NCBI GenBank assembly: GCA_015680905.1
Contig: CM027377.1
Coordinates: forward strand, 89,905,454-89,969,453
Origin: Coptis chinensis
Lineage: Eukaryota > Streptophyta > Magnoliopsida > Ranunculales > Ranunculaceae
Reading direction: 5' to 3'
Length of the DNA: 64,000 nt
The position numbers and the translations under genes are program-made. The notes beneath the pieces are model-generated. The model was not told the DNA's origin, ran no database searches, and saw nothing but the letters and a program-made list of their open reading frames with translations. Below are positions 33,052-60,383 of this stretch, in pieces (position 1 is the first letter of the stretch; each line of letters begins with the position of its first letter).

Positions 33052-33059
33052 ATATATAT

Positions 33060-34993: not shown

Positions 34994-35235
34994 TATGACG
35001 GCTATTGCAACATTATGTCGTGTATGACACAAGCGTCACGAAATTATAATAAATTTATGACGGCTATCGCAACATTATGTCATGTATGACACAAGCGTCA
35101 AGAAAATATAATAAATTTATGACGGCTGTTGCAACATTGTCGTGTATGACACAAGCGTCAAAAAAATATAATAAATTTATGACGGCTGTTGCAACATTAT
35201 GTCATGTATGACACAAGTGTCAAAAAAATATAATG
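34994..35235 (+). repeat. CACTA-1 left subterminal tandem repeats
   Basis: Four units of about 60-63 bp repeat 'atgacggctrttgcaacatt', then 'gtatgacacaagcgtca', then an AT-rich link. Each unit carries TGACGG and, inverted, 'gcgtca'. Such subterminal repeats bind element-encoded proteins in known CACTA elements; binding here is inference. Scattered single copies (tgacgg, ccgtca, atgacg) occur in the right subterminal region, about 52560-52945. Confidence 0.8.
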
Positions 35236-35239
35236 GTAT

Positions 35240-37503: not shown

Positions 37504-37720
37504 GTTTGTATGAATTGAGAGAGTACAAATAAAGCGTTGTGTGTGAAGATGAATAGATACTGGTGATGTTAAGAAGAGATATATAGAGTAGTGTACATGA
37601 TGGTCTTTTAGTGTGAGTGCTTTAACGTTTTGTTGTGTGTACATGTGTGTGTGTGTCCTACTTGTGTGTGTGCGTCTGTATTCGAACAAAGAACTTAACA
37701 TAAAGCTTAACAACTGAAAT
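37504..37720 (-). promoter_or_regulatory. Captured upstream region of the acyltransferase fragment
   Basis: On the minus strand a TATA-like CTATATATCTC lies near 37579-37588, about 80 bases before the fragment's ATG. It is preceded by a CACACA microsatellite (37632-37678). The leader between is CT- and CA-rich like a plant 5' UTR. This suggests the host promoter and 5' UTR were captured with exon 1. Confidence 0.45.
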
Positions 37721-38499
37721 GAATTCTAACTTACTAATTTTAACATATAAAAAGGTAAACAAAGCGTTTGCTTATTAAAAAAGTGAAAAAGAAAAGATAA
37801 AAACCATTAAAGTAGCCAAGGAAATACTGGTACACCACCTACCCTTAGTCTTTACCAAAGTATACAACAACCAAAACCTACTCAAGTAACAAATAATATA
37901 CTAATTAATGGATTTTTCATGTATACAACATCCTATTTTGACTAAGGACATTACCAGCTAGGCTTGGAAACAATAAAGTCATTCTCTTGCATAAAATATT
38001 TCATGAAAAGAAAGCAGTTTAATAAAACCACGTTCAATAATTTGTTGGGTACTGTTGTTCCCTACAGACTCACCAAGCCAAAATCGTGTATTGCTCAACT
38101 ACAAGCCAAAGTAGCCATTCTTTAGACAAATTTAATAAACCGAAATTCTAACCTTGATATATGAATACTATTCCAGCTCTAGTAAAACAGTAAGAAATCT
38201 GCACTTCTACTTCTCATATTCACATCTAATTTTTCAGCATAACACCCATATCTACTATAAGTATTAGACCAATCGCAAACTACACGAAAATAGTAATTTC
38301 AAGAATTAGTAGTGAGCTTTCTATCTAAGGAAACCTGCCTTGAACCCCAACAAAGCCACATGTACAAACCAAATTAATCTAAGGTATTTCCTTTATATAC
38401 TTTTGCATTTTTTATTTATTTATATTTTTAGCAAAATTGAGTGCTCTGTTTGGATGTCTTCAGGAACTTCTTGCCACGCACAAACTTATTAGATACTAA
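37721..38499 (+). other. CACTA-1 sequence upstream of the transposase
   Basis: No gene is visible. It is AT-rich, probably the 5' UTR or an intron of the transposase gene. Confidence 0.4.
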
Positions 38500-41400: not shown

Positions 41401-42125
41401 AAGATAAACTATTGTTAAGTAATAATTTTGTGTACGCCTTGGTTACTAAATTTAAACATAATATAGGTTTCAGAAGAGCAAAGCCGAATAACAAAATCTT
41501 AAGTGTGTTAACTTGGATAGCTCAGGGACCTCGAATGCATGCATTGAAATATGAGAGTTATGTCATCAATGGTTATCGGTTTTCCATAAAAGGTCGTGAT
41601 GCTTCACGATTGAATCAAAATAGTGGTGTAAGCTTGGTGGCAGGAGCAATGCAAGTTGCAAGTGCAAAGGACAAAAATCCAGACTTTTCCAACATGTCCT
41701 TCTATGGTGTTGTCGTTGAAATATGGCTTCTTGATTATTTTCAGTTTCACATTCCAATGTTCAAGTGTGATTGGGTTGACAGCGGGAATGGAATAAAGAC
41801 CGATGATCTGGGTTTCACACTAGTGGATCTTGATAGAGTTGGGCATAAATATGTTCCCTTTATCTTAGCCTCTCAAGCCAAGCAAGTCTTTTATGTTCCC
41901 GATCAACTTGATCCTAAATGGTCGATTGCTCTAACAACTCCTAAAAGATGTTATAATGTTAGTGATATTGGTAATGACGTGTTTGATGGGGATATTGGAG
42001 ATAGGGTTCAGCCTGAAGTCATGCCAAGTGTTGATTCATTTGATGTGAATGATGAATCTCAACCAATTTTCTCACGTAAAGACTGTGATGGAATATGGGT
42101 CGAGAATGATTCTTCTAAAACCTAG
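38500..42125 (+). pseudogene. CACTA-1 TNP2-type transposase, broken
   Basis: It starts MDKSWMSKDRLSDEYIQG (transposase-associated domain, cysteine motif 'CPCEHCVNLC'). A one-base shift follows near 38650, then 'RNHLFHHGIDKQYIRWVFHGE'. Transposase core motifs are 'LALSTDGFNPHG', 'LPPWLCVKRKFMMLTMLISG', 'LLWTINDFPVFGNLSG', zinc-type 'YYACPVCGEKTHS' and 'LDVMHIEKNVCD'. Nonsense codons lie at 39239-39241 and 39485-39487, both where a tryptophan is expected. Frameshifts lie near 40215 and 41345. The 3' half has DUF4218 ('LLPVAIRSVLPKHVR', 'SVLKGYVRNHNRPEGCMAENY') and DUF4216 ('SFYGVVVEIWLLDYFQF') with GT-AG introns at about 40843-40928, 41212-41290 and 41400-41466. In functional CACTA elements this protein cuts the TIRs. 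Confidence 0.9.
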
Positions 42126-42388
42126 TGTTTCTTTTTCCTCTCTTTATTGCAATTTTTTTGGTTGTAAGACTTTTATTAAGTGTTTTTAATAATTTCAAGT
42201 GATTGAGATTTTTTTTTTAAAAGTGGTTATCCCATCTTGTATTTATTCATTTTAATCGTCTATTTACTATTGCATTCAGTTTACTACTCTATATAATATG
42301 GTTTGAATGTAGATAATATGGTTTGAATGTGGATAATATGGTTTATCTTACGTACTAATTACTACTATATGTTATTCATAGTTCAACG
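42126..42388 (+). other. Spacer between the two CACTA-1 genes
   Basis: This short AT-rich spacer includes 'gtagataatatggtttgaat' in near-tandem copies (42296-42345). It is likely the terminator of one gene and the leader of the next. Confidence 0.4.
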
Positions 42389-45247
42389 ATGGATCCATAA
42401 GAGGTTGTCCATTCCGAAGACGAAGAAGAACTAAGTGACACTGAAACACTAAGTGACACTGAAGCACTAAGTGAGAGAGGTGCGACCATAATGCATGCCT
42501 TGTCTTGTAAGTGGGATGGCATAATAATTATTGTTGAATTTAATGGAAAAGGTAAGCCTATAGGTCAAAAGGTGCACAACAAGCTTTCTGGTTGGGAAGG
42601 TGCTCTTGCGAGGGCCATAATTCCTTTAAGTGCTTTTCAAACATGGAAAAAAGCACCTGAGGAGCTTCTAAATCTTTTGTGGGTCGGCATTCTGGTAAAT
42701 ATATCTTGTATAGTTCCTTTTTGGTTTGTTTTTATTTCTTGCTTGTATCTTGAATTTTTTTTGTTTGTTCATTACTCAAATTAGATTCAATATAGATGTT
42801 AAGTATAGGAAGGCAGTTTTGAAATCAATTGGAGTTAGTTGGAGGACCTTCAAGAATATGCTTACGAAGAAGTTTATCTTCCCTTTTAAAGATGATCAAG
42901 ATGCGTTTACAAATCCATCTAAAAAATATAAGATAAGGAAACCCGACTGGCATGCATTTGTGAAATCGAGATTAATGGGAGAGGTCCAGGTATATCATAA
43001 ATTTTATTAGAATAGAATTTTTAGTAAATTGGTTGTGTTTATTCATGTGTACTTGTGAGATATATATACTAAGAATGCATGTAAACCATTTTTGAAAGGA
43101 GAGAAGCAAATTACAATCAGCACGAAGGAAAATGAATAAGTATAACCACCGAATCAGCAGGCTTGGATATGGTGGCCTAGAAGATAAATTGGTAAGTACT
43201 TGCATAAATCTTTTAAATATCAATTTATATATTGAACGTAACATAGACTCTACAAATAATTGGACTTCCTATTTATATGTTTTATAATAGAAAGAAGAGT
43301 TGGGAGAATCTTTTGATGAGGATGATAGAGCTAATTTGTGGCATTTAGCTCGTCAAGACAAGAATGGTGGATATTATGATGATGATATGATGGAAGTGGC
43401 AGAAAAAATTGTAAGTTGTTTATATCCTTTTATAGACATTTAAGTATATGTACTTATGTGTAATGTGTAGTAATATTATTAGATATAGCAAACATGTAGT
43501 AGGTTGTGTGCTGGTATAGCAAACAAAGAGTTTTCTGCTACCCCCTTTAGGAAGTAAAGTTTTTCCAGACGAAGCCCTCCACCAGCCCCACTTGATCATC
43601 TGCCTGCTGATCCTTCGTGTGATTTTCCTTCGGTGTGTTTTTCCTACCTGCTAATCCTTCATTTGTTTTTTCTGAAGGACTTGTGTTCTCCCACAGAACA
43701 CACATCGATCATTTACTCCTAACTTCAATTCCATTCTTGTAGTTTCTTCAAGGGTTTATGACCACCATTCATCACCATCCAGCAGTAATGGTGGGAAATT
43801 CTATTTTGAAACCATGCTGCTGATTCTTGTTCCGTCTTTCATTCAACTGTCATTAACTTGCTACTTATTTCCTCAATCTCTGATCTCACTAACTGATGAG
43901 CATAGTTAGATTTCCTAACCTTATCATTTACTTAGGTTGTGCTGCACTTTGCTTAGATTCTTTGCCATTCTCTCCCCCCTCATGAAGGAAGTAGATTGAT
44001 CAACAGTCCGCGAGCTCCCTTCCCCTTGATTTTTTCGAGCTCGACATCTATGTTTCTTGCTGGGAGACTCCCATCTAGTTTCTGATCTTGATTTTCTGTG
44101 TCCTTGATTTTTTGGTCTTGATTTCCTGTGTCCTTGCTTTCTGATCTTGCTATTTTTTGATGGTCAAATGGTCAAATGGTTTTCTGATCTTGCTATTTTC
44201 TAATGGTCAAATGGTCAAATGTTTGCTGTTTTCTGATCTTGCTTTTTTTTTTGGGAACTCGTCAAATGGTCATCCTATCAAACACATAGCATTAATACTC
44301 TTTCTTTTCCCAAAGATGCTGCTATTTAGGGAGTTCAAGTACAATACTCCAAAGGTCCCTGACCTTTAAGGTTATTTCAAAGATAAACAGTATCAACAAT
44401 AAAGATATTGACTTAGTCTTCTTCTAAAAGTTAAAGCAGTGCAGGCATGTTCAAAACAACAAACAAGAAACCTCGCAAGTATATCCAATCAAGTAATCCC
44501 CGACCTATTACAATATATGATCACCAAAAAAGTCATACCGAAAAAAATGTGCAAATTCTAAAGTTGTTGCCACCACAAACCACAGGCAATCCTAACAATT
44601 CTACCACTTACCTCAAGCCTTGTTTGCAATGTTGTTTGATAGCCAATCCCGGCCCTCATAAAGGCCTTACTCCAGAGGTTGCACAAGAACTCTGATCAAT
44701 GGCTTATCTAAGGATGATATATATTGAGCCTTGTTTGCAATGTTGTTTCTTTTATGTTCCGATTGTCACTTTAATTAAATAAAAGTTCAATTGATGTGCA
44801 GGACCAACTAAAAAAAGAAGAAGCTAATAGGAAATTAGTAACCCAAGGAAGCGACGATGTTCTTGCGAAGGCACTAGGGACTCCAGAACATTGTGGAAGG
44901 GTAAGAGCAGGAGGTAAGTATGTCACTCCAACAACTTACTTCAATATCCCAGAAAGGGGTCAAGGCACATAGAGCGAGATATGGAATCCGTGATCTGTAA
45001 GAAAGAAGATGAGAACAAGGCGTTAAAGGAAAGAGTGAGACAGTTAGAGGCATTAGGTATTATACAAGGAATTACCACCAACGTACAAGAACTAGAGAAA
45101 GTTGCTTCCAACAGTTCTAAAAATGAGGGGAGAAAGCGAATGTCAAGCCCATTGGGTGACCAACTATCTAATGGTGCTAACAATAAGACAAATTATGAAT
45201 GTCTTAACATTGAGCTTGAAGCAAATGTGAGAAAGAAGTGCAAACAG
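42389..45247 (+). pseudogene. CACTA-1 second gene, 5' exons (TNP1/Spm-type protein)
   Basis: ATG at 42389 opens MDP followed at once by a stop, then an acidic 'EEELSDTETLSDTE'. Exons with GT-AG borders read on: 42389-42694 ('HALSCKWDGIIIIVEFNGKG', 'NKLSGWEGALARAI'), 42785-42989 ('KSIGVSWRTFKNMLTKKF'), 43099-43191 ('RKMNKYNHRISRLGYGGLED'), 43291-43410 ('NLWHLARQDKNGGYYDDD') and 44802-45247. The last includes 'KALGTPEHCGRVRAGGKYV', a motif of plant CACTA second genes, a stop near 44970, and a coiled coil 'KEDENKALKERVRQLEALG'. The order matches the N-terminal half of Spm-like proteins of plant CACTA elements. The intron at 43411-44801 is unusually long. Confidence 0.7.
43411..44801 (+). other. 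Enlarged intron with tandem repeats
   Basis: This 1.39-kb intron has higher GC than its neighbours. It contains a repeat array at about 44080-44275 built from 'tgatcttgctattttctaa' and 'tggtcaaatggtcaaatg'. It also contains a direct repeat 'gccttgtttgcaatgttgtt' (44617-44636 and 44729-44748). I recognise no gene. It could contain captured DNA. Confidence 0.5.
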
Positions 45248-45320
45248 GTAAATTTTTACGCTTGTGATTATATAATGCAAATAGGTAATTATATTTAATA
45301 ACTCAAACTATCCAATGCGT

Positions 45321-46564
45321 AGACAAAGAGTAGTGCTAAATCAAAAATCAACAAGGCAATCTCAAAACCTAAATATGGAAAGGAGCAGGTATATGTTACT
45401 TAATGTTTAAACTGTAAATGTTATTTTATGTATATAATTGTTCAATTTTACTTTTATTTTTTTGTTAGGCTATGGGCTTGAAAAACAAGAGTGTTGCTAA
45501 GACCAAATGCAAAGTGGCGGTCGTGAAACCTACTCTAGGAAATGAGCAGGTACTTGTTATTTTAGTGTAAACTACAATAAATAGTTGTACTATCAATATT
45601 AGTGTATGATTTTCATTGTGTGTTTATTAGGCTATGGGCTCAAAATGTGAGGTGGCAATCCCAAAACCTAAATCAGGAAATGCGACGGTAAATGTTGTGT
45701 AATTTCTATAGTGAGTTATCATGGTATTCTAGGATATTTTAACTTATCATTATTGTTATATTTGACATTGATATCAAAAGTGTAAGCTGGCTTTGGAGTC
45801 AAAAGACAATGTTGTTGCTGATGCTAGTCTCATTGAGGGGTCAGGACTAGACGAGAAGATCCATTACGTTACATTGGGGGAAGGATATGTACGTGTTCAT
45901 ATTATACGTGCAATTTCAGCAACTGCCATTTTGCCAAGACCAGTTCTTGATGATGCTGTTACCACTGTTGGAGGAGCGGTTGGTTACATTGTGGCTTGGC
46001 CTCGTGAATTTGTGCTACTTTGTGATAATGCAATATCACAACCTAAGTCGGGAAATGAGCAGGTACTTGATATTAACATGTTTACTAAAGGTTATACACT
46101 CACCATATTATTAAAAACATTATTATTATGCTTGTTAGGCTATTCGCTTGAAGGACAATAACAAGGTTCTTGAAGCCAAAAAGGACATACCAATCTCTAA
46201 GTCTAAATCAGGAAATGCGAAGGTAAACTCTGTGTAATGTCCATAATTAGTGACCATAGTACTCTATTATCTCCAAACTTACTATTATTGCTATGTTTGT
46301 CGTAGTTTCCAATGTGTAAGTTAATTTTGGAGTTAAAAGGCAATGTTGTTGCTGATGCTAGTCTAATTGAGGGGTCAGGAGCAGATGAAATGATAAATGA
46401 TGCTAGATTGGGGAAGGTTATGTATGCGAAACTTCAAATTATCGTGCAATTTTTGCAATTGCCCTTTGCCAAGACCGATTTTTGATGATGACATTACCAA
46501 TCATTGAGGTGCGGTTGGGTACCATGTGGCTTGGCCTCGTGACTTTGTGCTGCTTGAAAATATG
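45321..46564 (+). pseudogene. CACTA-1 second gene, repeated middle exons (DUF8039-like)
   Basis: Small exons repeat a common pattern, each flanked by AG and GT and most ending in a lysine/glycine motif. Examples are 'AMGLKNKSVAKTKCK' ending 'LGNEQ', 'AMGSKCEVAIPKPKSGNAT', and 'AIRLKDNNKVLE' ending 'KSKSGNAK' (46139-46222). A longer exon (45781-46062, 'CKLALESKDNVVADASLIEG', 'TTVGGAVGYIVAWPREFVLL') resembles a domain usual in plant CACTA second proteins, which I take to be DUF8039. A second, decayed copy of it starts at 46315, 534 bp downstream ('CKLILELKGNVVADASLIEG'). Confidence 0.6.
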
Positions 46565-46661
46565 GTAAAACATTTAACACTTTTTACATATATCTATAAC
46601 TATTTATTCTTTTTTTTTCTATAACTATTTATTCTTATTATTAGTTGTTTTTTTTTGTTAG

Positions 46662-47836
46662 ACTGATGAAGTTGAATGTGATGAGTTTGATGAATGTACG
46701 CTGAAAGAGTTTGGGGCTTTGGTGGGAAGTGTAATGAAAGGAAATCACATAAGTCAAATGGACACTAGGGTTTTTGAGCGTGAGTTGCAATTTTTTATCG
46801 CCAAAGATGAGATCATGGATGTTTGTCAACCTAAGAATTTGTTGAATGCCAATTGCATTATTGCTTATATCAGGTGTGTCAAATATTTTTGATTGATGGG
46901 TTGTTTGATTACTCCTCTTTGATGTGTAGATGTACTAATGTTTACTTTCCCTTTTAGATATTTGTTTGAGAAATATGAAAGTTCTCAACAAAGGTTTGGA
47001 TTTTGCTATCCCAACATTTCAGCCGTTATCTTTGATAAGAAAGAGATGAGCCGTTTTGTCTTGAATAGATTACAAGCAAGACAAAGAGACGAAGTTATTT
47101 TCCTTCCTTACAACCCAGGGTAAACATGTGGGCTATGTTAATTAAGATCTGTTGGATCTCATTAATTTTGTTTTATATTATTTTGTGATGTTATTGTTCT
47201 ATATATAATTTTAGGAGTCATTGGGTCTTGGTAATGATTGACGTAAGTGCAAAAGAAGTATATTATCTTGATTCAATTGGACGTGAACTGAATATAAACC
47301 TAAAAGTGATGGTGAACACGTGAGTTGATTTTACTTTTACTTTTAATTTTTGTATGATAATGCACATATGCCTACATCTTTTAACATATTGAAATTCTTC
47401 TTTAGTGGGATCAAAACACTAGCATTGGGTGAAGGAAAGAGAGGAACCAAAATGGCAAAAAAGTGTCCAGTAAATAAGCATTACATGAATATACAATGTA
47501 AATTATAGTCCATTATCGATCGAATGTTGATCAACAATTTTTTGATGTTGGTGTGTAGTGCCCTAAACAACCAGGAGATTTTGAATGTGGATATTACGTC
47601 ATGCGGTTCATGAGACACTTTATGAAGAATCCTAATCAATCACTTAAAACAAAGGTTAATAGTTGTTATTTCTCATACTAATTGCAAGTATATAAAAAGA
47701 ACAGAGATGATTGTAATTTCTTTGTTGACTTATGTAGCTAATGGAGTTGGCTAACACTAGGACATATGCAAGCGCGGACCTTATTGAAATTCGTCTGGAG
47801 TTTATCGAGTACATCGAGAAATTTATCTCGGCATAG
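46662..47836 (+). CDS. CACTA-1 second gene, Ulp1-like cysteine protease (C48) exons
   Basis: Exons with GT-AG borders are 46662-46873, 46958-47119, 47215-47319, 47406-47469, 47559-47654 and 47738-47836 (stop TAG). The joined frame reads without a stop. Catalytic residues of the Ulp1/SENP fold are visible: His in 'SHWVLVMIDVSAK', Asp in 'VYYLDSIGREL', and Cys in 'KQPGDFECGYYVMRFM', with the upstream Gln of the oxyanion hole. Family members remove SUMO from proteins. Several plant CACTA and Mutator-like elements encode one, with unknown benefit. Here it is the C-terminal part of a gene whose 5' exons carry stops, so expression as one protein is doubtful. Confidence 0.8.
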
Positions 47837-47989
47837 GTATGTGCACCATTTATATATCTTTTATGTTTGATAGGTATTTGGGGGTTGTATATAAAACTTT
47901 AGTCTGAAATTTTTCCACCATACATTTCGAATTTAGGTCTGATTTCTTATGTTCTTTCCTTTGCTTATTAGCTAAAGGGTTATTTGTTG
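47837..47989 (+). other. 3' flank of the protease gene
   Basis: AT-rich and likely the 3' UTR. No gene is visible. Confidence 0.4.
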
Positions 47990-48880
47990 TCGGGAAAAGG
48001 AGCTCTAATGGTACTTTAGAATAATAGGGACTAATAGCCAAATCCAGGCTTTTGAGTTTGTAGCTAGGCAGCTACTCTCTAGCTTCCAGCTATTCTTCCT
48101 TCTCTTATGGGACTTGAAGCCAAGTAAAGGCAGCTTGCTGTTGAGTTATAGTCTTTAAGATATGGGACTTAGGCGGGGAACCTCAGTTAAACAAACTAGT
48201 AATCTTAGGCTTCGCTACCTGACTTATCAGCCAGCAAGTAAACTACCTTAACCCCCTGAAATCTAAGTAAGGAGTTGGCAGCATTTCGAGCTAGGAGTTG
48301 AACCAAGGCCGCTATTCCTAACTTAGAGATAGTAGTTCCCAAGTATGATATGAAATAGGAAGGATAAAGGCCTTGCCCTACTCTAATACAAGTAAGTAGC
48401 TAACACTACCTTAATCCCCTGAAGTAAGGATTTTGAAGCTCAGGAGCAAGAGTAATCTGTGGTTTGTTTTGACCCGGGAGGGAGCTAGTCCTTTCAAGAT
48501 GGGAACCAGTAGCTAACAAGTGTGCCCCGAGTGGAATCCTACTTATACTCTTTCTACTATATTGGCGTGGATGGGTGCCAAGTTATTAGTAGGTAGGCTA
48601 AAGGCAAGAAGTAGTTCAGTCGTTTAGGTCAGGGCATGAAGCTACAGGTTCTATTTGTGGTCATGAGACAGAAGTCAGAGGCAACTTGTTATATAGGTAG
48701 CCATGCGTGTTAATAGATCTTCTTCTATACTAGTAGTAGCAGTAGTGGGTGAATCGATTTCTTAGGTTATTAGGCTTAGTTTTTTTTTATTAGAAGGATA
48801 AGCATGGTTATTGCTGTTTGTCCTAACATCCAGCCGAGGTAGGCTACTAACTTGCTCGTTAGAAGTAGTTAATGAATGGA
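47990..48880. other. Sequence resembling plant mitochondrial spacer DNA, part 1
   Basis: Composition changes sharply to a balanced base use, rich in short words such as 'tagctaggcagctactc', 'ccaagtaaaggcagct' and 'gggcatgaagctacaggt'. Coding bias is absent and no transposon features are seen. This texture is typical of intergenic DNA of plant mitochondria. I have no direct match, so the origin is inferred. No tRNA or known mitochondrial gene is recognised. Confidence 0.35.
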
Positions 48881-48927
48881 AATAAGGCCATTTGATGTCT
48901 ATAAGTGAAGATTGGATGGATGCCCGC
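48881..48927 (+). repeat. 47-bp direct repeat, left copy
   Basis: It begins 'aataaggccatttgatgtct' and ends 'ggatggatgcccgc'. The right copy at 50761-50807 differs by one base. The two copies exactly bracket the captured NET1-like gene fragment. Confidence 0.9.
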
Positions 48928-50760
48928 TCGTTCAATACAGTCAGAGCCAGCCTACACTCCTTCAATACTGACTTAAGACGCAAGTATTTATGGTGGTGGG
49001 ACAGCCATATACCAAAGAATTCAAAATGGCTTCAGGAAAATCTTACAGGTATTGCTTTCCCATTACCAGTTTTGGCTACATTTCTGTTTGAGAATGTTGC
49101 GTGTTGTTCTGATCCTTGTTTTGTTCATATAGATAAAAAAAAAAAAAAAAAAGTGCATTTGTCTCTGCTTTTCTAATGAGCGAAAGTCGCGAGGTTTTTC
49201 CTTACTAAAGGATTATATGATACAAAGGTTTAGCTGCAGAGGTTTCATATGCATTAGTTTGTCTATCTTTATCCATTGTCAGTCCTTTCCATTGCTCTCT
49301 CATCAATTGTCAAACCAGTTTGTTGTGTTCTCAAGTCGTTTTATCATGAAATTGGTACCTCTTGGAAATTTGTATTCTTTTGTATCAAGGTTCAAAAACA
49401 CACTTTGGTTTTTATATACTTGCTCAGTTGCACCATAAAGGCATATGCGTAGAGTAATCATATCTGAAACTATAATGGGTTAGTAATATTCTCTAAGCAA
49501 TTATCGATTATCAATATTCTCCTAATAAATTCAAAACACATTTTAATGTGGAAATTTAAAAGAGAAAAAAAAGAAGGAAAGGGACTTTTCTAAATATAAA
49601 GGGTGTTTGATTAAAATATTCTACCTATATTTTGTTGATTCTGTATTTTTTGTGAGATTTTTTTCTTAGGATTTCAACTAGGTTGATCACACCAAAAGTT
49701 GTGGTTATGCCAAGTGAAATCTTAACATTCTTTCTTTCTGTTTTTATTTTTCATGAATATCTTTACTAATTAACAACCTAAAATAAGAAAAGAAGGCATG
49801 TTAATTTTTCTTTTTCTTTTTCAATGTAAAGGATGTCTGATTAGACTTGTTATTTTTGTTTCTATTTATTTAAATATTTGAGTTCTGTTGGACTTTCTCC
49901 TAAACATTTTTGTAAATCAACCTTGTACTGCACATGATGTGAAATCACTCTCAATAATAACCTGTTGAACCATCTCATTTTACATATTTACTATGTTGTT
50001 ACTGTTATGACATCTTAAATTGATAGATTACACTTGTGTATTCATGTTGAATGCACCAGCTTTTATTTAGTATTGGCTCAAGAGCACACATGATTTCTGA
50101 TCAATGATGTTCACTGTAAGAGATATGGATTCCAAGGTCAAAGCAATGATCAAGCTTATTGAAGAAGATGCAGATTCTTTTGCGAGAAGGGTAAAGATGT
50201 ACTACAAGAAACGTCCAGAGCTAATGAAACTAGTCGAAGAGTTCTACAGAGCTTATCATGCTTTTTTAGCGAAAGATATGATCACGCTACGGGGAGCACT
50301 CCGCCCATCCCATCTACCATGGCGAGCGTTTCCCAACCAAGTTCCCATTGTAATTTATTGATTCACCATCCTCCGCGAATTGAGACCGAATCGCTCTACT
50401 CCTGAGATGACACGTCATGTACGTGCATCCCTTTGACCTCGATGATTTACGAAGGATGCTTTGGGTATGCCATCATCCCAATTTACCTCTGTTAGTAGAA
50501 ATGGGGCATACTCTGATGAATATGATCACTTTATAAGCAAAAGGGATTAAAGCAGCTCAATGAGTTGTTTGGATCAGGAGAAAGAAGGGTTAGAAAAGGC
50601 CTCCATTTTCATGATGATGACTGAATCGACTCCGAGAGCTAGAATCTCAAGGCAAAGGTAGATGTAGAGTCGGTAAGAGCAATAAATGCTGAGACTGAAG
50701 TTCAGATCCTAAAGGATGCCCTTGCAAAATTAGAAGCAGAAAAGGAAGCTGGCCTCCTTC
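48928..50760 (+). pseudogene. Captured fragment of a NETWORKED1/KIP1-like gene (NAB domain)
   Basis: Exon 1 ends at 49048 and reads 'RRKYLWWWDSHIPKNSKWLQ'. A GT-AG intron (49049-50122) sits at the position expected inside the NAB domain. Exon 2 continues 'MDSKVKAMIKLIEEDADSFA' and 'YYKKRPELMKLVEEFYRAYH'. A frameshift near 50275 is followed by 'YDHATGALRPSHLTMA'-like sequence. Further decayed pieces read 'TPEMTRHVRAS', 'KDALGMPSSQF', 'GLKQLNELFGSGE'-like, and finally 'AETEVQILKDALAKLEAEKE' up to 50760. NET1 proteins bind actin through the NAB domain and have long coiled coils. Only about the first fifth of the gene is present, with an internal deletion. Retention of the intron means DNA-level capture, not retroposition. 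Confidence 0.88.
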
Positions 50761-50807
50761 AATAAGGCCATTTGATGTCTATAAGTGAATATTGGATGGA
50801 TGCCCGC
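50761..50807 (+). repeat. 47-bp direct repeat, right copy
   Basis: One mismatch (g to t at base 30) relative to 48881-48927. It follows the last NET1-like codons ('EAGLLQ') without a gap. Confidence 0.9.
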
Positions 50808-52040
50808 CCCTTGGGTATGCTTTCAAAAGGGCTGTTTTCATGCGTCCTGGTGTTCGTGGTCTGTTGGTTTTTCTATTCTCGTGGGGGAGCATCTACAAGT
50901 TGAGTCTCTTAGGTTTTCATTCCTTAATGTACTCGGTAGTGTAATAAGGCTAGTCTTCGGGTCCCTCCTATCTAGAGGGACGCTATAAAGGGCTTTGTTC
51001 TTGCTTTTCTTGATCTTCCCTTCAGCCGCTTAATAGTTGCCCTCGTAGGTTAGCCAATAAGGAGTGAAGGGCTTCCCGTCCCGATCCCGTTTTTAGCTCT
51101 TTCTTTTGATTTCTATGCCTAACCAACCGTGAGCAAACCATTTATAGAAGAGTCAAAAAAGCCTTCTTGCTCTTATCTTCCTCCTTCGTGTAGTAAGGGA
51201 TTGTAATAGGTAGCTAGCTTCGAGTCCGATAGTACTCCCTTCTTGCTGGATCCTAATTCGATCCATTGGACTCTTAGCGGGGAGGGAGATGGGCCCCTTG
51301 GGCACGCGTCTAGTTCTTGTCCATTTTCCTTGCTTTGCTTCCTTTCCGTCCTTCTTTCCCAATGAGTGTAATATAGCCCGTAGCTTCTTGTTTTCACTTG
51401 CTAGTCTTTGATTGAACCATTCTCATTGCCTCTATCCCTATGAGTGAGTCATCCTTTCTTCTAATGCTACCGATTGGAAATTCCTTACTCTATCTCTTCT
51501 AGTATCGGGCCATATTTCACTAAAAAAGAGTTACTGCCTCCAGTTAGGTTTTTTTTTTTTTTCCTTCTTATGATTAATTCATCTTTGATATGTCCTTGAG
51601 TCCAATGAGGCCAAAGAGTTAGAAGTCTTAGACTCCAAGAGCAAGTGGGCTAACCCGAACTACTAGTAACGGGATTTGCCTGCCATACGAGTAAGGGGAA
51701 TGGAACTCTTGTTTGAGAACTTTAGCTACGGACTTAGGTTAGCTAGCTCAGCTTCTCCTATGGCTATTTGGATTAAGGAAGTAGGGAAATGCACAGACAA
51801 AGAAGGCCTAATCTAATAATGGTGAGTCGAATCGCACACGCAGCCGCTCCAAGGCTTTTATGCCACCTAAAGGCCTAAAATAGGAGAATGAGATTCATGT
51901 TTAAGTATCCTTCGGGTTTTGCCTATATTCTTTGCTTTAACGATTGAGTTCCCCTTTTCGAGTGGTAGCGCCTATACCTTTTAGTGTTCCGGCTAGTTAG
52001 TACATATCAGATATATCCTACAGTGGTGTACGTTATTTGG
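50808..52040. other. Sequence resembling plant mitochondrial spacer DNA, part 2
   Basis: It has the same texture as 47990-48880: 'ggagggagatgggccccttg', 'ccgattggaaattccttact', 'gagtccaatgaggcc'-like words, balanced bases and no coding signature. With part 1 it encloses the NET1-like fragment. The origin is inferred from texture only. Confidence 0.35.
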
Positions 52041-52951
52041 GGCTTAACCAATATGATTCTCTATCATAGTTGATTGTATCTCTTTTGTTTAGTAGTTATT
52101 GACTTAGTGTGCTAACACATTGTTTGTGAATTTTTTTAATACTGTGTAGAAGTTGTTATATGATTATATTTTTTAGTTTACTTATTAAACAAACTAACAC
52201 ATTCTTCTTCATATTGCTTTTTAGGTTATAAGTGAGATAACACGGTAGCTCAATTAAGTTTGTTTGAGATGGATCGGTTTATTAGCAATTTGTTGGATAG
52301 GTTATGTAAATTGCATTGTTGTTGGATTATGAGACTTGATTTTGAATCAAGTGCTTAGGTTATTTAATTTTTTTCTCCGTGAATAAATCATGTAATATGA
52401 ACAAGTTCTTGGAATGATTTATGTTAGTAATAAAAGTATGATTCTTGTTTCAGTAATGGACTCCAGCTGTCAAGTGTCTGAATGTATTGGTGGTGTCAGA
52501 ATGTCTTGGTTTATAGGAATTTTCAGATTTACAGGAAAAAAAAAAAAAAAAAAAAAGGAGTTATGATGGCTTCCAAAGAACTGTCGTGTGGCATACCAAT
52601 TCTTGACAGTTTTTAGTGTTAATTTCTTGACGCTTTTGTTTCTCAGGATGACAAATAAAAACAGTCATAAATGAAGGTTTATTTTTTGACACATTTTCTA
52701 ATAAATTATGATGGTTAAGTAAAACATGTCATGCAAAAGGATCCAGTTATGACGTTTATAAATGAGTTTTTGTCATATTAAATTCGAGCTTTGATGTCAG
52801 CTTCTCCAGAACCGTCATCAAAAGTATGACGCTTTTGGTTAACTTTTATGACGGGCTCTATAATGACTGTAGTTTTTTTAATGAAAAAATGTCATTAAAC
52901 CTGTTTCATGACGGCTAAAAGTCGTCATCACAAGTCACTTTTTTAGTAGTG
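52041..52951 (+). other. CACTA-1 right subterminal region and TIR
   Basis: AT-rich sequence with a poly-A run (52537-52556) leads into the subterminal block. There, 'ttgacgc', 'atgacgg', 'ccgtcat' and 'gtcatca' words occur in both orientations from about 52560. The element ends at TTTTTTAGTAGTG. No gene is visible. Confidence 0.75.
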
Positions 52952-53317
52952 AGTTGTTTATCTTAAGATAATTTGATTATTATGCATGTATTAGTTTAAG
53001 TTTTAGAATGATCATCCTTGTTTAAATTCTAGTGAGATGTATAGATTCCTCGAGATAAAAAGTAGGAACAATTACTTTTATTTCTCTCAGTCGTTTGTAG
53101 TATAAATGAAGTTTGTGAGTACCTTCTCTAGAAAACACTTACGAGGCTATAGCTGCAGCCCACTAAAGGAATTCTTAGTGGTTTAAAGGCCTTATTATAT
53201 GGTATGGTCAATGGTAAAGACTCAAAAAACGAGACTAGTTAAATATACATTTTTGGTCACTTATTTTAATTCCACATATTTGCTTGAGGACAAACAAAAT
53301 ACTGTTTGGGGGTGGTT
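52952..53317 (+). other. Element D, right part: end of 3' UTR and polypurine tract
   Basis: It continues element D after CACTA-1. 'ttgtttatcttaagataatt' here matches, inverted, the uninterrupted sequence of element E near 56475-56510. A stem-loop (53280-53297, TTGCTTG/CAAACAA) precedes the polypurine tract CTGTTTGGGGGTGG (53302-53315). Confidence 0.8.
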
Positions 53318-54708
53318 TGATAAGAGCCCAAAACTGTAGTTTAAACCCTTTAATAGTATTTCTATTTAGCCAATTATGTTATTAATAATATAGGTTTATC
53401 AGTAATTCGTGCTTTTTGAGTATTACAGGCTTCGGAGTTGAATAAATGTCAATTCGTTACTAATTAGGTGCTTAAAGGAGCTAAAAAGTGATTGCCGGGA
53501 AGTTTCATGAAGAAATCCCAAGTTTAATGGTGAAAAAGCCCTTAAAAAGCACAAGTCAAAACTGTTAAGTGAAAGTCAAACCGGATTAGAGAGTAGAAGA
53601 AAAGTCAACAGAACTTCAAAAGGCCATATTTTTGGACTCATGCCTCAGATTTGGGCCCATTTTATATCAAAATGACCGGCTCAGAAATCTCTTTCCAATA
53701 ATCCTATACTTGACTCAAGAAAAGTAGTATAAGTCAGTGAAAATGTGTGCTACATTAATACAATCGACTGTAAGTCTTGGATTCAACCAATTGGGTTATG
53801 GACTTGATTTATGGGTCCATAACCTAGCCTGAAAACCCATGTACAATTTTGTATCATTATATAAGAGAATAAAAATCCTAAACTCTCTCTCTCCTTTTTT
53901 ACTTTTATTTAGGTTTAGTTAATGAGTTTAGTTTTGTAGCCTCCATTAGAACCTTTTTAATAAAAGTTTTAGTTTATTCAATTCAATTACTTCTTCTTTA
54001 TATTATGTCTTCCTTTCATTATTTTTGTTTAATTAATCCAATGATATTAGGCTAACCCCCCTCATTCGAATGAGTGATGATTAAACCTATTAAGGAATAT
54101 ATTGCTTAGTAGAATTATTTAATTGTGCATGTATTTCAATGAGTTTAGTTTATTGTATAACTTTCAAAATAAGCATATAGTAAATTAAACTAGGGATTGT
54201 TTTAATTAAGTCGAGAGATTTGGTTGTAATAATCCTACATGCTAGTAATAATGACTATAGAGATGTAGGTTGTTGCTAGGGATGATAAAGTTTTAGGCTT
54301 TAGGTTGGATCATTATGTGAAAACCTAAAGATGATCTCTTTTCAATGAATAATTCTATTCTTGCTTGAAACTAATCATTAGGTGGATTGATTACTCTTCT
54401 CTACAACTTTCTCTTCCATCAAAACCCTATTTCTATTAGTTTAGTTAATTTAGATTTATTTGAATCCATAGTATAATCTTAAAATAGAAATCTCTCAACA
54501 TAATATTACTCTCACCATTGTTTCTTTTTGATTTAAATTAGTTTAATTTCTTTTATGTCTTGGTAGTTTAGGAGTGGAACGAATCCGTACTCTTTATATT
54601 ACTTCATTATTATTTGAGAGTAGGAATATTGATCTAAGTACTTGTTTAGTTGATTGATTAATTATGTTTATGCATAGATAGTTAGTTTACATAAACTTGT
54701 AGCTATAA
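53318..54708 (+). repeat. Element D 3' LTR
   Basis: It starts TGATAAGAGCCCAAAACTG directly after the polypurine tract. Alignment with the inverted E LTR places its end at 54708, where the expected TGTCA has become TATAA. The sequence beyond continues AATGGCGCC, as after a 5' LTR. It resembles the E LTR at roughly 90% by eye and the A LTR more distantly. Confidence 0.8.
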
Positions 54709-54791
54709 AATGGCGCCGCTGCTTGGGATCGAACCCGGGTCACCCGTGGATGCGCGAATACTCACCACTATACTACAGTTTTTGTGCCATT
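54709..54791 (-). other. tRNA-Asp-like sequence between two inverted LTRs
   Basis: Read on the minus strand, 54789-54711 contains 'tagtatagtggtgagtattc' and, after a divergent anticodon region, 'gggtgacccgggttcgatcc' and a 3' end 'gcggcgcca'. These match the D arm, T arm and acceptor 3' strand of plant tRNA-Asp, and CCA, not encoded in nuclear tRNA genes, is present. The anticodon arm is shorter by about three bases with no GTC visible. The 5' acceptor strand does not pair. It is not a working tRNA gene. From the plus strand it looks like the usual primer site extended over the whole tRNA. Confidence 0.75.
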
Positions 54792-56151
54792 TGACAATTA
54801 CAAGTTTATGTAAATTAACTATCTATGCGTAAACACAAATAATCAATCAACTAAACAAGTGATTAGATTAATATTCCTACTCTCAAATAATAATGAAGTA
54901 ATATAAAGAGTACGGATTCGTTCCATTCCTAAACTACCAAGACATAAAAGAAATTCAACTAAATTAAATCACAAAGAAACAATGGTGAGAATAATATTAT
55001 ATTGAGAGGTTTCAATTCTACGATTATATTACGGATTCAAATAAATATAAATTAACTAAACTAATAGAAATAGAGTTTTGATGGAAGAGAAAGTTATAGA
55101 GAGGAGTAATCAATCCACTTAATTATTAGTTTCAAACAAGAATAGAATTATTCATTGAAAAGAGATCATCTTTAGGTTTTCACACAATGATCTAACCTAA
55201 AGCCTCAAACTTTATCATCCCTAGCAATAACCTACATCTCTATAGTCATTATTACTAGCATGTAGGATTATTACAACCAAATCTCTTGACTTAATTACAA
55301 CAATCCCTAGTTTAATTTACTATATGCTTATTTTGGAAGTCATACAATAAACTAAACTTATTAAAATACATACATAATTAAATAATTCGACTAAGCAATC
55401 TATTCCTCGTTAGGCTTCATAATCACTCCTAATGGGGGGGATTAGCCTAATATCATTGGATTAATTAAACTAAAATAATAAAAAGAAGACATAAAGAAAG
55501 AATTAATTAAATTGAATAAACTAAAGCTTTTATTAAAAGGTTCTAATGGAGGCAACAAACTAAACTCATAAACTAAAACTAAAAAGGGAGAGAGAGAGTT
55601 TTTGGTTTTTATTCTCTTATATAATGATACCAAATCGTGCATGGGTTTTTAGGATAGGTTATGGACCCATAAATAACCTAATTGGTTAAATTCAAGACTT
55701 CCAATTCTGGTCGTATTACTGTAGCGAGCATTTTCACCAACTTTTACTGCTCTAATCGAGTTAAAGCTTGGACTATTGAAAAAAGCTTTATGAGCCAGTC
55801 ATTTTGATATAAAATGGGCCCAAACCGAGGTCTGAGTCTAAAGATATGGATTTTTGAAGTTCTGTTGACTTTTCTTCACTCTAATCTGGTTTAACTTTCA
55901 CATAACGATTTTGACTTTGACTTTTCGGGGCTTTTTCTCCATTAAACTTGGGCTTTCTTCATAGAAATTTCCTAGCAATCACTTTTAGCTCCTTTAAGCA
56001 CCTAATTAGTAACGTGATTGACATTTATTCAACTCAAGCCTAGAATACTCAAAAACATATAATTAGTGATAAACCTATATTATTAATAACATAATTGGCT
56101 AAATAGAAATATTATTAAAAGGGTTTAAATTACAGTTTTGGGCTCTTATCA
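54792..56151 (-). repeat. Element E 3' LTR
   Basis: Read on the minus strand it starts TGATAAGAGCCCAAAACTG and ends AATTGTCA, 1360 bp. It mirrors the D LTR. Internal sequence of E lies to its right, making it a 3' LTR. Confidence 0.8.
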
Positions 56152-58231
56152 AACCACGGAAACAGTATTTTTGTTTGTCCTCAAGCAAATATGTGAAATT
56201 AAAATAAACGGCCAAAATGTATTTTTAACTAGTCTCGTTTTGTTGAGTGCGACTACATTGACCATATGTAATAAGGCATTAAACCACTAAGAATTTTCTA
56301 GTGAATGAGTTATAGCCCCGAGAGTTTTCTAGAGAAGGTACTCACAGACTTCATTTATACTACAACCACTAAAAATAAAAAGTAATTGTTCCCTAATTTT
56401 ATCTCGAGAGCTTATACATCTCACTTAGTATTTAAACAAGGATGGTCATTCTAAAACTTAAACTAATACATCCATAATAATCAAATTATCTTAAGATAAA
56501 CAATACACTGAATTATGATATGAAATGCAATGGCGGTTCATTTCTCAAACTTTTGGGTAAGCGTGCCTAAGTAGGTTCTCACAAGTAATGTGTCAAAACA
56601 CATAATACTCTAATTTTTCCACTCAAGTTTGCTAACTCCAGTTATATAGTGGGCACACATTTCTTTACAATCTCAATGACAATCTAAGGAAGTCGAGGTC
56701 AATCAACACATCTACCACTTACTATCACACCAACCTATTCCCCGATTGAGCTAGAAGTCTTTATTAGGTGATACTTTAGGGGGTTAGTTAAAAAGGAAGG
56801 AAATTGATATTCAAAAAAAGACAGGGTTTGAAAAATAGGGGTTTTCATATTATGTAACTTAGAGAAAACCTTGTTCTTTTGTTTCTACTCTTTTTTTTCT
56901 CCATACTTAGCCCTTATTTTGGCTTTTGACTCCTTTTGATTATATTTTAGGAGTTCTAACTTTTATTTTTATTTCCTTTTGGAAGTTTTCTTTTCTTTTC
57001 TTTTTCTAAAACAACTAACTAATTTTTGTTTACACAGCTTTTTCTCTTCTCTTTTTCTTCACTCATCCTATTTCTCGAAGCTTATCCAGATAGGTAGGCT
57101 TCTTTTATTTTTTAATTTATTTTATTGGGTAAAGGATTTGCGGTTTGTGAAAAGTCTAATGAAAGGCTCGATTGGGATAACTAGCGGATAATAAATTTCA
57201 TATAAGTGTGAATTTAAGGCTATATTGATCTAAAGAGGCCTAAATTCTAGCTTAAGATATGGTGTGGTGATCAAGCAAGTTGATGTGTGATTTCTTTATT
57301 TCTCTCCTTGTGTCATCACTTTCGATATTTCACTCTTTATGCTTTTTTAGGCTAGATGCTCACAACATATGTATTAAGTACTTTAACCTAGGTCTCAGAA
57401 AAATATTGCTAAGTATAATCAAAGATGCTCATGCAAGATGTTCATGAAAAGATGCAATAACTATTACCTATATATTAATCTAAGTTTCAAAAATTAAATC
57501 ATAATTCAAGTACTACGTGAGATTTCTAAAATAATATCATCATAGAGAAGGGAACAATACCATTATCACTAAGTGCCTAGTATAAACAGTATTTATGATT
57601 TCTAATATTTTATAAATATAAGTGCATAATTTACATCCTAAAAGTGCCTAATTTTTGCAAATGTTTCTATCCCACCCCCAAACAATCGAACGCTTTGTCC
57701 TCAAAGTGTAAAGAGATAAAGAAAGAATTTACCATAGAAACGTGGTAAAAATTGGCGTACACAGAACATGAAATATTATAAAGATAATATGATAATATGA
57801 AGCACAATAAAACTGCATTGCGTTCACTAACTAACACAAATTCTACTGGAGTAAACATGATGAGGCAAAGGGTGGCAAAAAGATTTGAAATGAAATACCA
57901 AAATACGCACCCCAAACAAAATTTGGAAACTCCTTTTTAAGATTAAAAATTTTTGTGGCCTATACTCGAAAAAGGTGGTATGTTACAAAAATTATATGGG
58001 TCTTTTTAAGTTAGATTCCCTTGACTTAATGTGATATATATGTATTAACATGCAGTTTACCATATATCAATAATCTAAATAATTATGGATCTTTCCATAA
58101 ATAGTTAACACCGAATGCACCATCAAATAAAATCACGCACCAAGATTTCCTATGATGTGGCTTAGTGGAATGAGAGTGAAGCCTAATAGACCTAGAACGC
58201 GTAGCTGAGCATGCACTTTCTTCTTCCTCCT
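56152..58231 (-). other. Element E 3' UTR
   Basis: No gene is visible. It holds a stem-loop (56171-56188), a purine-rich block on the sense strand (56870-57060), a polypurine motif at 57672-57685 with stem-loop CTTTG/CAAAG (57693-57706), and a degenerate one near 57907-57918. Confidence 0.7.
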
Positions 58232-58688
58232 CTACAAAAGTGATGCCAAGTTAATGAAGCGGAGAAAAATAGATGGTTTTGGAAAATACGTGGGATGTGG
58301 ATAAGTTTTAGAAGGATGGAATGGAAAAAATGAAAAAGTGTCAAGTGGCTTGTCCTTGGGTATTATTTCCATATTAGGAGGGTTTAGGAAATCATAAAGC
58401 ACAGGAGAATCAAGAAGGTCAAGTGCAAACTCAATGGTTCTTTGAAAGGTAGAGGGCTTAGGAATATTAAGTGATGGAAGGTGAATGAGTGACATGTAGA
58501 TGTGAGGTGGGTGAATGGTGCTTAACTAGTGTTCTTAGTTCTATATCATCAGAGGCCTTGAGATATGCAAGACATTCCTTAATAGGTGGGTAAGATAAAT
58601 CACTGGGATAGAGGGTGAAAAATTCTTCTTTCGTTTTGGCATCAAAGGATGAATGGATATTAATAGGAGGGGACTCGCGAGGTGGCAA
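58232..58688 (-). pseudogene. Element E extra ORF after protease (unknown)
   Basis: Two overlapping frames (58688-58467 and 58495-58232) together match the 149-codon ORF of element D. They include 'FFTLYPSDLSYPPIKECLAY', 'TIEFALDLLDSPVLYDFLNP' and 'KTYPHPTYFPKPSIF'. A frameshift near 58480 splits it. Function is unknown. Confidence 0.6.
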
Positions 58689-59570
58689 AGAAGGGTTGCA
58701 AATGAGTTGAAGGAAATCTTCCTAGATGTTATCTACGCCTAGGGAGTAGAAATTGTGATCTTTGTCCTCTTCCATAAGAGGGGTATCTACTAGTGTGGGG
58801 ATGAAAGTGTCACCGTGCATTAATATGAGATACAAAGCTCTCAATGGACTTCACTTCTCCTTCTACAGGCAAACCTAGTTGATTTGGGCAAACCACAAAA
58901 AGATTTCCAAGAGAAAGAGTCATTGAGCTATCCCTACAATTGATTTGGGTATTGGCGGTTGCCAAGAAAGGGCATACTAAGATATTGGGAATTGAATCAT
59001 GAGCAACTTCGTAGTCGAGAATAACTGAGTCGGGTTTGGATAGTAAAAAAATCGAGCTTTAAAGAGAATGTTTTCAACTATACTCTTGGGATGCTTAATA
59101 GAACGATCGGGCTAACTGCAAAAGTCATTTTGGTTGGTTGAAGTTTTGTTAGACCTAGTTATTTATATAAATAAAATGGGAGTAAGTTAACACTACAAGC
59201 CCCAAAGTCTAATAGAGTAGTTGTTATGAAGTAATCTCCCAAGGTGCATTGAACAAGAAGATGACCAAGTTCCTTGTACTTAATAATTCTGTTATGTTGA
59301 GGATAAAGAGGATATTGTTTTGTTAGGAATGCTTCATTGGGTATGTTGGTTTTATAACATCTAGAAAAGGTAGGCTTAAATGTCATCTTCTTGGTGCACA
59401 ACTCTTTTTAGAAACTTAGCGTGTCAGTAGGTTTTTTATAGCATCTAGAAAAGGTAGGTTTATAGTCGATTTTTAAACACTTCCCTAATCTCATCAAAAT
59501 TTACGTCCATTTTAGACACAATTAGTCTCTGGGGATACAATGTTTTATCTCTATATTTAGCATAAGGGCC
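58689..59570 (-). pseudogene. Element E protease
   Basis: The minus strand reads 'TNIPNEAFLTKQYPLYPQHN' and the active site 'TTLLDFGACSVNLLPFYLYK', which carries an inserted residue in the normal FGASVN. The second half follows toward 58900 in shifted frames. A short duplication of 'catctagaaaaggtagg' (59359 and 59439) lies in the linker before it. Confidence 0.7.
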
Positions 59571-60383
59571 AAAAGTATTATTAGTCTTTGCTTTATCTTT
59601 TATCGTTTCCATCTAGGTTTCCATATCGAACCTCTAGTGTAGGATCATCAATTTCTATGGTGGTATTTAGTAAGGTTGTACATTTTGGTTGTGGTTGGAT
59701 TGGAACTTCTACAGGTTGTAGGGTCTTCACGGCTATGACAATATTCGGTATGGTTTCATTTTTCATCTTATGCCAGGGCAATCTTCGTGCATAACTACTT
59801 TGTTATCAACTACTCTCCCCTGAGAATGAAGTGGTAGTATTACTGTAAGCCCCCCTCGTTATTTTACCATTACACTGAATACTGTTTATTTCGAAGGCGG
59901 TGTTTGTTGACTTAGGATTAGACATCGCTTGACACAGGAAACAAGCTTTGTTTGGTTATTATTTTTGGTTAGGAGACATGTCAATAACCTTTTGGAACAA
60001 AGACACCGCATCATTTGCATCGTTTGTTGCATCATTTTAGAGTTTTGATCATGCTGATATTTTATTAAGTTGGAGTTTTGTTACATAATTTGATTTTGTT
60101 TTTCTAACAAGGTCACAACTACTTTGTCTTTAGATGGTTGAACTAGAATTAATGCTTGTTGAGCGTTCATGTCTTGATGTTTATAGTTCTAGGTCATGGG
60201 CACTAAACCTCTATTACGGTCACCTAAGTTTCCTTTTCCTTGAGGGTTGAAGTTAATGGTTGAAGTTTGATGGTTGTGGTGGGTGGTTGTGCATAGACAA
60301 GAGGACAATAGAAATTGGAATGCTCAAGACTAAAACAAACATTACAATGAGTAGAGTTAATGTTCATGACTGAGCTGGTTGTT
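59571..60383 (-). pseudogene. Element E gag C-terminal part
   Basis: A zinc knuckle readable as 'CNVCFSLEHSNFYCPL' lies near 60300-60350 on the minus strand. A glutamine-containing linker follows, including 'KVIDMSPNQK' near 59965-59995, homologous to the start of element D at 31230. A Pro/Gln-rich part lies before the protease (59781-59593). The N-terminal capsid is removed by CACTA-2. Confidence 0.65.

What the first reader, a model, noticed from the sequence alone, without database searches (positions are those of the whole stretch)
53318..56151. Two inverted LTRs joined through an almost full-length tRNA-Asp copy
LTR D (plus) and LTR E (minus) point at each other and are separated only by 83 bp beginning AATGGC and ending GCCATT. 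Both LTRs are therefore followed by what looks like a primer site, although each is a 3' LTR by position. The spacer matches tRNA-Asp from the D arm to the terminal CCA. Nuclear tRNA genes do not encode CCA, so a reverse-transcribed primer is more likely than a tRNA gene used as target. This could be a trace of aberrant reverse transcription, where the tRNA primer was copied beyond its normal stop and two elements were joined tail to tail. I do not know of a standard description of such a junction.
Basis: partly seen in the sequence, partly recalled or inferred. Interest (0 to 1): 0.8.

Follow-up and report, generated by a model that had tools for sequence, protein, structure and literature searches.

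The report
Copied tRNA primer joining retrotransposon ends
In a plant genome, the transfer RNA that starts copying of a jumping gene was itself copied into DNA and left between two jumping-gene ends joined tail to tail, and the same mistake recurs at many other places in that genome.

Summary
LTR D (53318-54708) and LTR E (54792-56151, inverted) face each other across 83 bp holding a copy of host tRNA-Asp(GUC) from nt 6 to the terminal CCA. The junction also stands in a 94.7% identical copy of the region on contig C6, so it is not a local assembly slip. A host tRNA-Asp gene on C4 has the copied sequence but no CCA. It is not a one-off: tRNA-Asp complement with CCA, running past A58, matches at 174 places (95 with at most 1 mismatch; the rest may include host genes). 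Of 80 sampled places, 77 lie directly behind an LTR end, with 78 distinct joints. Copying ends cluster at tRNA nt 10-12 (33 of 77) and nt 1 (11 of 77). Misplaced leaders, forward or inverted LTRs, or inverted internal DNA follow. The initiator-tRNA-Met pattern gives at most one case. Best explanation: plus-strand DNA often ran through the primer tRNA-Asp and its surplus end joined the wrong partner, here the U5 end of another cDNA. Isolated cases are reported for MMLV and HIV; my searches found no genome-wide record or tail-to-tail joints. Whether D and E came from one or two RNAs is unresolved.

The parts
53318..54708 (+). LTR D, 3' LTR by position
   Evidence: starts TGATAAG, last bases TATAA (TATCA in relatives)
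54709..54710 (+). AA between LTR and primer site, as in 5' LTR B
54711..54777 (-). copy of mature tRNA-Asp(GUC), nt 6 to CCA (complement on + strand); 3 nt lost in the anticodon arm relative to the C6 copy
54778..54785 (.). 8-nt filler GTTTTTGT where tRNA nt 1-5 would be expected
54786..54791 (-). GCCATT: the first 4 nt of a primer site (TGGC) plus AA belonging to LTR E
54792..56151 (-). LTR E, 3' LTR by position, inverted
52952..53317 (+). 3' internal region and PPT of the left arm, right of the CACTA insertion
31195..34898 (+). rest of the left arm's internal region, split off by the CACTA element; homologous to the right arm
34899..52951 (+). CACTA transposon inside the left arm (flanks AGC/AGT; Transposase_21)
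56152..60383 (-). internal region of the right arm up to a second CACTA element

Best explanation
The junction is a fossil of aberrant reverse transcription of a tRNA-Asp-primed Ty3/gypsy retrotransposon. Plus-strand DNA copied U3-R-U5 and then did not stop at A58 of the primer but ran on through the tRNA (here to about nt 6, elsewhere often to nt 10-12 or nt 1). The surplus anti-tRNA tail hindered normal second-strand transfer to the short, 13-nt primer site. Instead the tail was joined to the U5 end of another cDNA copy, which carried only 4 nt of tRNA complement, by end joining or a template jump. The tail-to-tail product entered the genome, and the region now exists in two places (C1 and C6). 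Shown: LTR-AA-tRNA-CCA order, recurrence, stop clusters, inverted joints, a second genomic copy. Inferred: the order of steps, the joining enzyme, the role of the short primer site, and modified bases as the cause of the stops.
For: Pattern for CCA + 32 nt of tRNA-Asp complement (17 nt past A58), <=3 mismatches: 174 places, reversed control 0; 53 with none and 42 with one mismatch. Of 80 sampled places, 77 have an LTR end (TATCAAA, <=1 mismatch) directly upstream; one (L120) is a host tRNA gene without CCA. 78 distinct joints among 80. Without the gene and two duplicates, 33 of 77 end at tRNA nt 10-12 and 11 of 77 at nt 1, p 2e-18 and 2e-6 against uniform ends. Downstream, of 80, by best match: forward PBS/leader 28, forward LTR 9, forward gag-pol or 3' internal 10, inverted LTR 13, inverted internal 7, no match 13. 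Of 12 forward cases with upstream DNA fetched, 11 have no element 3' end before the LTR, as 5' LTRs; two of the 11 lie beside other element DNA. Control primer: the iMet complement with CCA gives 8 matches, all with 2-3 mismatches, 7 lacking TGG, hence at most 1, against 3594 iMet PBS 12-mers (reversed control 24). tRNA-Asp: 94 places with <=1 mismatch other than L120, against 9530 ordinary sites, Fisher p 2e-13 versus 0 for iMet. In L136 and L137 the left LTR starts at the U3 TG beside DNA with no internal match (71 and 261 bp seen), while the inverted right LTR runs on into PPT and internal DNA, as expected if the left part is over-extended plus-strand strong-stop DNA. L109: complete tRNA copy joined directly to GCCA-TT-inverted LTR; its two LTR ends match each other at 60 of 74, but other copies at up to 92% and 97%. 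In the C6 copy the right arm ends inside the PBS with no 5' LTR, as expected of cDNA that never completed second-strand transfer.
Against: D/E has an 8-nt filler and stops at nt 6, so its exact end is not one of the two preferred stops. A cause in tRNA modification is not tested: I found no data on plant tRNA-Asp modification. The missing 5' LTR of the right arm could be a later loss. D and E are 10.1% apart, typical of the family (median 0.105), which fits two molecules or one early event.
Confidence: 0.82

Rival explanations
1. Fold-back of one molecule: the anti-tRNA tail folds like a cloverleaf, its 3' end pairs with the primer-site part of the same strand, primes itself, and makes a palindrome from a single cDNA.
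For: Spacer ends are inverted (AATGGC/GCCATT); filling in the 4-nt TGGC overhang predicts GCCA exactly as in L109. A D+E sister pair is not rejected (AU p 0.457). D and E share 4 rare variants, rank 14 of 300 pairs. In L124 and L132 the first bases of the two arms next to the tRNA are nearly identical.
Against: L109 joins LTR ends that differ more from each other than from other copies. The exact signature occurs once among the 211 matches with <=3 mismatches (100 listed); most of the listed near matches look like mutated ordinary primer sites. In L136/L137 the right arm passes U3 into internal DNA while the left starts at U3, which self-copying of strong-stop DNA does not give. The best tree does not pair D with E.
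Confidence: 0.15
2. The spacer is a host tRNA-Asp gene or pseudogene between two independently inserted, inverted elements.
For: Near full-length tRNA-Asp; some retrotransposons target tRNA genes (titles and abstracts; otherwise recalled).
Against: CCA is present and in phase with LTR-AA; the host gene L120 lacks CCA; both LTRs lie with U5 inward; 77 of 80 sampled copies have the same LTR-AA-CCA order.
Confidence: 0.02
3. The tRNA copy is an inherited part of a subfamily's leader and the inversion is a later chromosomal rearrangement.
For: L003, L004 and L005 share one joint and so descend from one event; int-LTR-int arrangements occur there.
Against: 78 distinct joints among 80; ordinary relatives have LTR-13-nt PBS-leader (9530 places); D/E flips just behind the tRNA copy.
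Confidence: 0.08
4. Assembly artefact at a palindrome.
For: The window lies at the very end of contig C1.
Against: Junction present at C6 too, 97% over 301 bp, inside 94.7% over 23 kb; the arms differ by 10-15%, so no mirror collapse; similar joints at other places.
Confidence: 0.02

Closest known systems
Circular MMLV DNA with a copied tRNA-Gly between its LTRs (Colicelli and Goff, as described in PMC12220202, Discussion part 1 read)
   Same: Mature tRNA copied into DNA next to an LTR end, four bases missing at the tRNA 5' end
   Different: Single cloned circle, a non-cognate primer; here the cognate tRNA-Asp, integrated, tail-to-tail and recurrent
HIV provirus with a reverse-transcribed tRNA-Gly beside its 3' end (PMC12220202; abstract and Discussion part 1 read)
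   Same: CCA side joined to the U5 end, 5' end of the tRNA shortened by five bases
   Different: One clone; its authors prefer insertion of the tRNA DNA after the provirus; no inverted second LTR
Full tRNA read-through of plus-strand strong-stop DNA (P1 product) when primer lacks m1A58 (review PMC13191261, passages read)
   Same: Same intermediate: U3-R-U5 plus the whole tRNA complement
   Different: Known from in vitro and cell work in HIV; here a genomic record of what becomes of such ends in a plant
Helenus TRIM elements with tRNA-like sequence (PMC10886601, passages read)
   Same: LTR element carrying a tRNA sequence
   Different: There the tRNA lies inside the LTR as a possible pol III promoter; here it lies outside, starts at CCA and follows the LTR

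Membership tests
Over-extended plus-strand strong-stop DNA product | tRNA complement begins directly behind U5 (+AA) with CCA | tested here: met
   77 of 80 sampled relatives
Over-extended plus-strand strong-stop DNA product | copying passes A58 | tested here: met
   copy reaches tRNA nt 6
Over-extended plus-strand strong-stop DNA product | copy ends exactly at tRNA nt 1 | tested here: not met
   window: nt 6 then 8-nt filler; met in 11 of 77 other joints
Over-extended plus-strand strong-stop DNA product | 5' end at the PPT/U3 border | tested here: not met
   window arm D continues into internal DNA; met in L109, L136, L137
Ty3/gypsy LTR retrotransposon, Athila-like | RT precedes integrase | tested here: met
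   related element 1 in the window: RVT_1 then rve; D/E arms themselves only compared by DNA similarity
Ty3/gypsy LTR retrotransposon, Athila-like | primer site matching a non-Met tRNA such as tRNA-Asp | tested here: met
   tRNA-Asp among primers of plant non-chromoviruses in PMC6317226 (passages)
Ty3/gypsy LTR retrotransposon, Athila-like | Athila clade by RT/INT phylogeny | not tested
   no tree of protein domains made; no Athila Pfam hit among the ten ORFs tried; the name rests on recall
Host nuclear tRNA gene | no encoded CCA | tested here: not met
   CCA present; host gene L120 has none
Two-LTR circle junction with a tRNA copy | two LTRs in the same direction around the tRNA copy (recalled as the usual circle order) | tested here: not met
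   LTRs are inverted

The most novel reading that the evidence does not exclude
The genome holds a fossil primer-extension assay of plant tRNA-Asp. In this lineage the primer has no effective stop at A58, the next barrier lies at A9/G10, and run-through plus-strand ends form a standing source of new element architectures, including palindromic tail-to-tail units that integrate by U3 ends on the outside.
Probability: 0.45. Interest if true: 0.82.

Novelty: new variant of a known kind. Interest (0 to 1): 0.72.

Why it matters
Second-strand transfer depends on plus-strand synthesis stopping at the right base of the primer tRNA. For plants I found nothing in my searches on what sets that stop. This genome preserves dozens of distinct failures, with readable stop positions and joining partners, and an apparent contrast between tRNA-Asp and initiator tRNA-Met primers. 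That makes the role of tRNA modification in plant retrotransposon replication directly testable, explains LTR-tRNA-LTR palindromes, and warns annotators that perfect tRNA-Asp calls with CCA can be retrotransposon debris: ARAGORN called L066, L109, L014 and others as tRNA genes.

Tried and rejected
Rejected: a host tRNA gene between elements (CCA, LTR phase); assembly error (second locus). I first favoured an intramolecular hairpin because L109 fits its fill-in prediction exactly, but gave it up as main reading when L109's two LTR ends proved to differ, the exact signature was found once and D/E was not a sister pair in the best tree; the AU test leaves it open.

Led nowhere: Rfam and ARAGORN on the window, as the copy is decayed; folding the spacer as DNA (z near 0); outer LTRs of the palindrome: left arm lost at 31195, right arm lacks a 5' LTR in the C6 copy, so no target-site duplication could be tested. 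Paper searches listed no report of LTR-tRNA-LTR inverted joints in plants that I could recognise by title, abstract or passages; only open-licence PMC text was searched. No data on m1A58 in plant tRNA-Asp were found (passages only).

Limits: the 80 sampled places are 52 of the 53 exact and 28 of the 42 one-mismatch matches, in listing order, not a random sample; the 79 places with 2-3 mismatches were not sampled, and host tRNA-Asp genes (no TGG) would fall there. The pattern needs 35 nt, so shorter run-through is not seen. Stop positions come from gapless extension, so small indels misplace some (L079, counted at 37 nt, runs on after a 2-nt insertion). 13 of 80 downstream stretches had no match in my reference pieces. 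The 9530 ordinary sites are one leader type at <=2 mismatches. One search aligned L006 in the wrong orientation, so that row is void.

Full report
What is there. The window holds two LTRs pointing at each other, D (53318-54708, +) and E (54792-56151, -), 83 bp apart. Outside each LTR lies the 3' internal region with the PPT border, so each is a 3' LTR by position; the palindrome with these flanks runs 52948-56509 at 85.7%. The left arm goes on at 31195-34898, cut off from D by an 18-kb CACTA element (34899-52951, Transposase_21). The right arm runs to 60383, where a second CACTA element starts.

The spacer. Reading from D it is AA, then the complement of tRNA-Asp from CCA to nt 6 (54711-54777), then GTTTTTGT, then GCCATT, the first bases of E's own AA+primer site in reverse. 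LTR-AA-TGGCGCCGCTGCC is the arrangement at 5' LTR B of an element in the same window whose ends show a GCTCC duplication. The copied tRNA is the host's: L120 on C4 is a tRNA-Asp(GUC) gene with the same sequence and without CCA. The C6 copy of the spacer agrees with 67 of 70 nt.

Not a local artefact. The window is G000:C1:89905454-89969453, at the end of that contig. The junction recurs at C6:53080524-53080827, 97% identical, inside a duplicate of window 40793-64000 at 94.7%.

Not unique. Neighbouring hits of the first search showed other LTR ends followed by tRNA-Asp complement: L012 (complete copy, then inverted 3' internal DNA), L014/L006 (complete copy, then the leader/gag region forward), L003-L005 (copy to nt 11, then the LTR end and primer site again). 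A pattern of CCA plus 32 nt of complement, up to 3 mismatches, found 174 places, none in the reversed control; of the 100 listed, 53 are exact and 42 have one mismatch. I fetched 80 of them in listing order. 77 of 80 have TATCAAA (<=1 mismatch) directly upstream. The three others are L120 (the host gene), L119 (another LTR-like end) and L064 (altered end). Joints fall into 78 distinct groups. By the best reference match, what follows is forward PBS/leader 28, inverted LTR 13, forward gag-pol or 3' internal 10, forward LTR 9, inverted internal 7, no match 13, the last including L120. The 79 places with 2-3 mismatches were not sampled and may include host genes.

Where copying stopped. With L120 and the two duplicate places removed, 77 joints remain: 33 end at tRNA nt 10-12, with 65 copied nt (stop just before G10) the commonest value at 16, and 11 reach nt 1. 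A reverse transcriptase halted by a modified base near position 9-10, or running off the tRNA's 5' end, gives this picture. m1A9 is known in human tRNA-Asp (PMC7293042, passages), but a block there would be expected one nt further on (66 copied nt; 4 of 77), so G10 fits at least as well. For plants I found no data. The expected first barrier, m1A58, is known as the stop in HIV (PMC13191261, passages).

Primer control. For initiator tRNA-Met, the equivalent pattern gives 8 matches, all with 2-3 mismatches, of which 7 lack TGG and look like genes, against 3594 exact primer-site 12-mers (reversed control 24). For tRNA-Asp there are 94 places with at most one mismatch (without L120) against 9530 ordinary U5-PBS-leader sites (reversed control 0), about 1%; Fisher p 2e-13 against 0 for iMet. 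With all matches, 173 against at most 1, the odds ratio is 65, but that count may hold host genes.

How the tail-to-tail joint arose. In L136 and L137 the left LTR begins exactly at its U3 TG beside DNA without an internal match (71 and 261 bp seen), whereas the inverted right LTR continues into PPT and internal DNA. The left part therefore looks like over-extended plus-strand strong-stop DNA, joined to the U5 end of a longer cDNA. In L109 the complete tRNA copy meets GCCA-TT-inverted LTR without filler, and the two LTR ends are 60 of 74 identical to each other, but up to 92% and 97% to other copies, hence probably two molecules. In the window both arms carry internal DNA. In the C6 copy the right arm ends inside the primer site with no 5' LTR, against sequence that looks copia-like to me (not tested), as cDNA would before second-strand transfer; a later loss is not excluded. 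Single cDNA or two: LTR D and E differ by 10.1%, the internal arms by 14.8%; the family is star-like, D-E distance 0.098 against a median of 0.105, the best tree does not pair them, and the AU test does not reject the pair (p 0.457).

Why so often in this family. The common leader type has a primer site matching only 13 nt of the tRNA (TGGCGCCGCTGCC, then ATCTTAG). A plus strand of 18 nt or more would end in unpaired bases after normal transfer. This may favour wrong transfers; it is inference. Of 12 forward cases examined, 11 have no element 3' end before the LTR, as 5' LTRs of integrated elements do; one (L084) has, and two of the 11 (L091, L110) lie beside other element DNA. Over-extended ends thus seem compatible with integration; target-site duplications were not tested.

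What is known. A copied tRNA-Gly between LTRs of a MMLV circle and one beside an HIV provirus are described in PMC12220202 (abstract, passages and Discussion part 1 read). Read-through of unmodified primer is known in vitro and in TRMT6-mutant cells (PMC13191261, passages). Helenus elements carry tRNA-like sequence inside the LTR (PMC10886601, passages) and are different. That the Ty1 primer sequence is not inherited (Lauermann and Boeke 1994) I know from a title in a reference list only. My ten paper searches listed no report, recognisable from what I saw, of a genome-wide record of primer run-through or of LTR-tRNA-LTR inverted joints.

Verdict. The kind of event is known from isolated retroviral cases; its frequency, its stop clusters, its apparent preference for the tRNA-Asp primer and its tail-to-tail products make it a new variant.

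Noticed in passing
5912-20792: Complete Ty3/gypsy element on the minus strand: LTR B (5') and LTR A (3'), 3.1% apart, GCTCC at both ends, nested in a related element.
   Followed up: partly
19271 and genome-wide: The common leader type has a primer site matching only 13 nt of tRNA-Asp (9530 places), so a normal 18-nt plus-strand end would be mismatched at its 3' end.
   Followed up: partly
L012:4613-4687 and L069: Two places share the joint complete tRNA / TAAGAAATAAAA of inverted 3' internal DNA in different subfamilies: one old event or a preferred site.
   Followed up: no
L013: U5 end, primer site and first leader bases duplicated in tandem about 265 bp apart.
   Followed up: no
L079, L081, L134: Between the tRNA copy and the inverted LTR lie short stretches that resemble further tRNA pieces (for L134).
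   Followed up: no
about 29925-31195 and 23965-25186: A TG..CA repeat of about 1.2-1.3 kb, 86% alike in two elements; near-matching flanks at the second, none at the first, where it ends the left arm.
   Followed up: no
1-1750: Fused plus-strand LTR fragments: an LTR end runs directly into the middle of another LTR.
   Followed up: no
60384-64000; C6:53086314 to about 53127998: A second CACTA element interrupts the right arm; in the C6 copy the interruption is about 42 kb long and holds other retrotransposon pieces.
   Followed up: partly
45656-46555: Two copies of about 365 bp at 535-bp spacing, 78% alike, inside the CACTA element.
   Followed up: no
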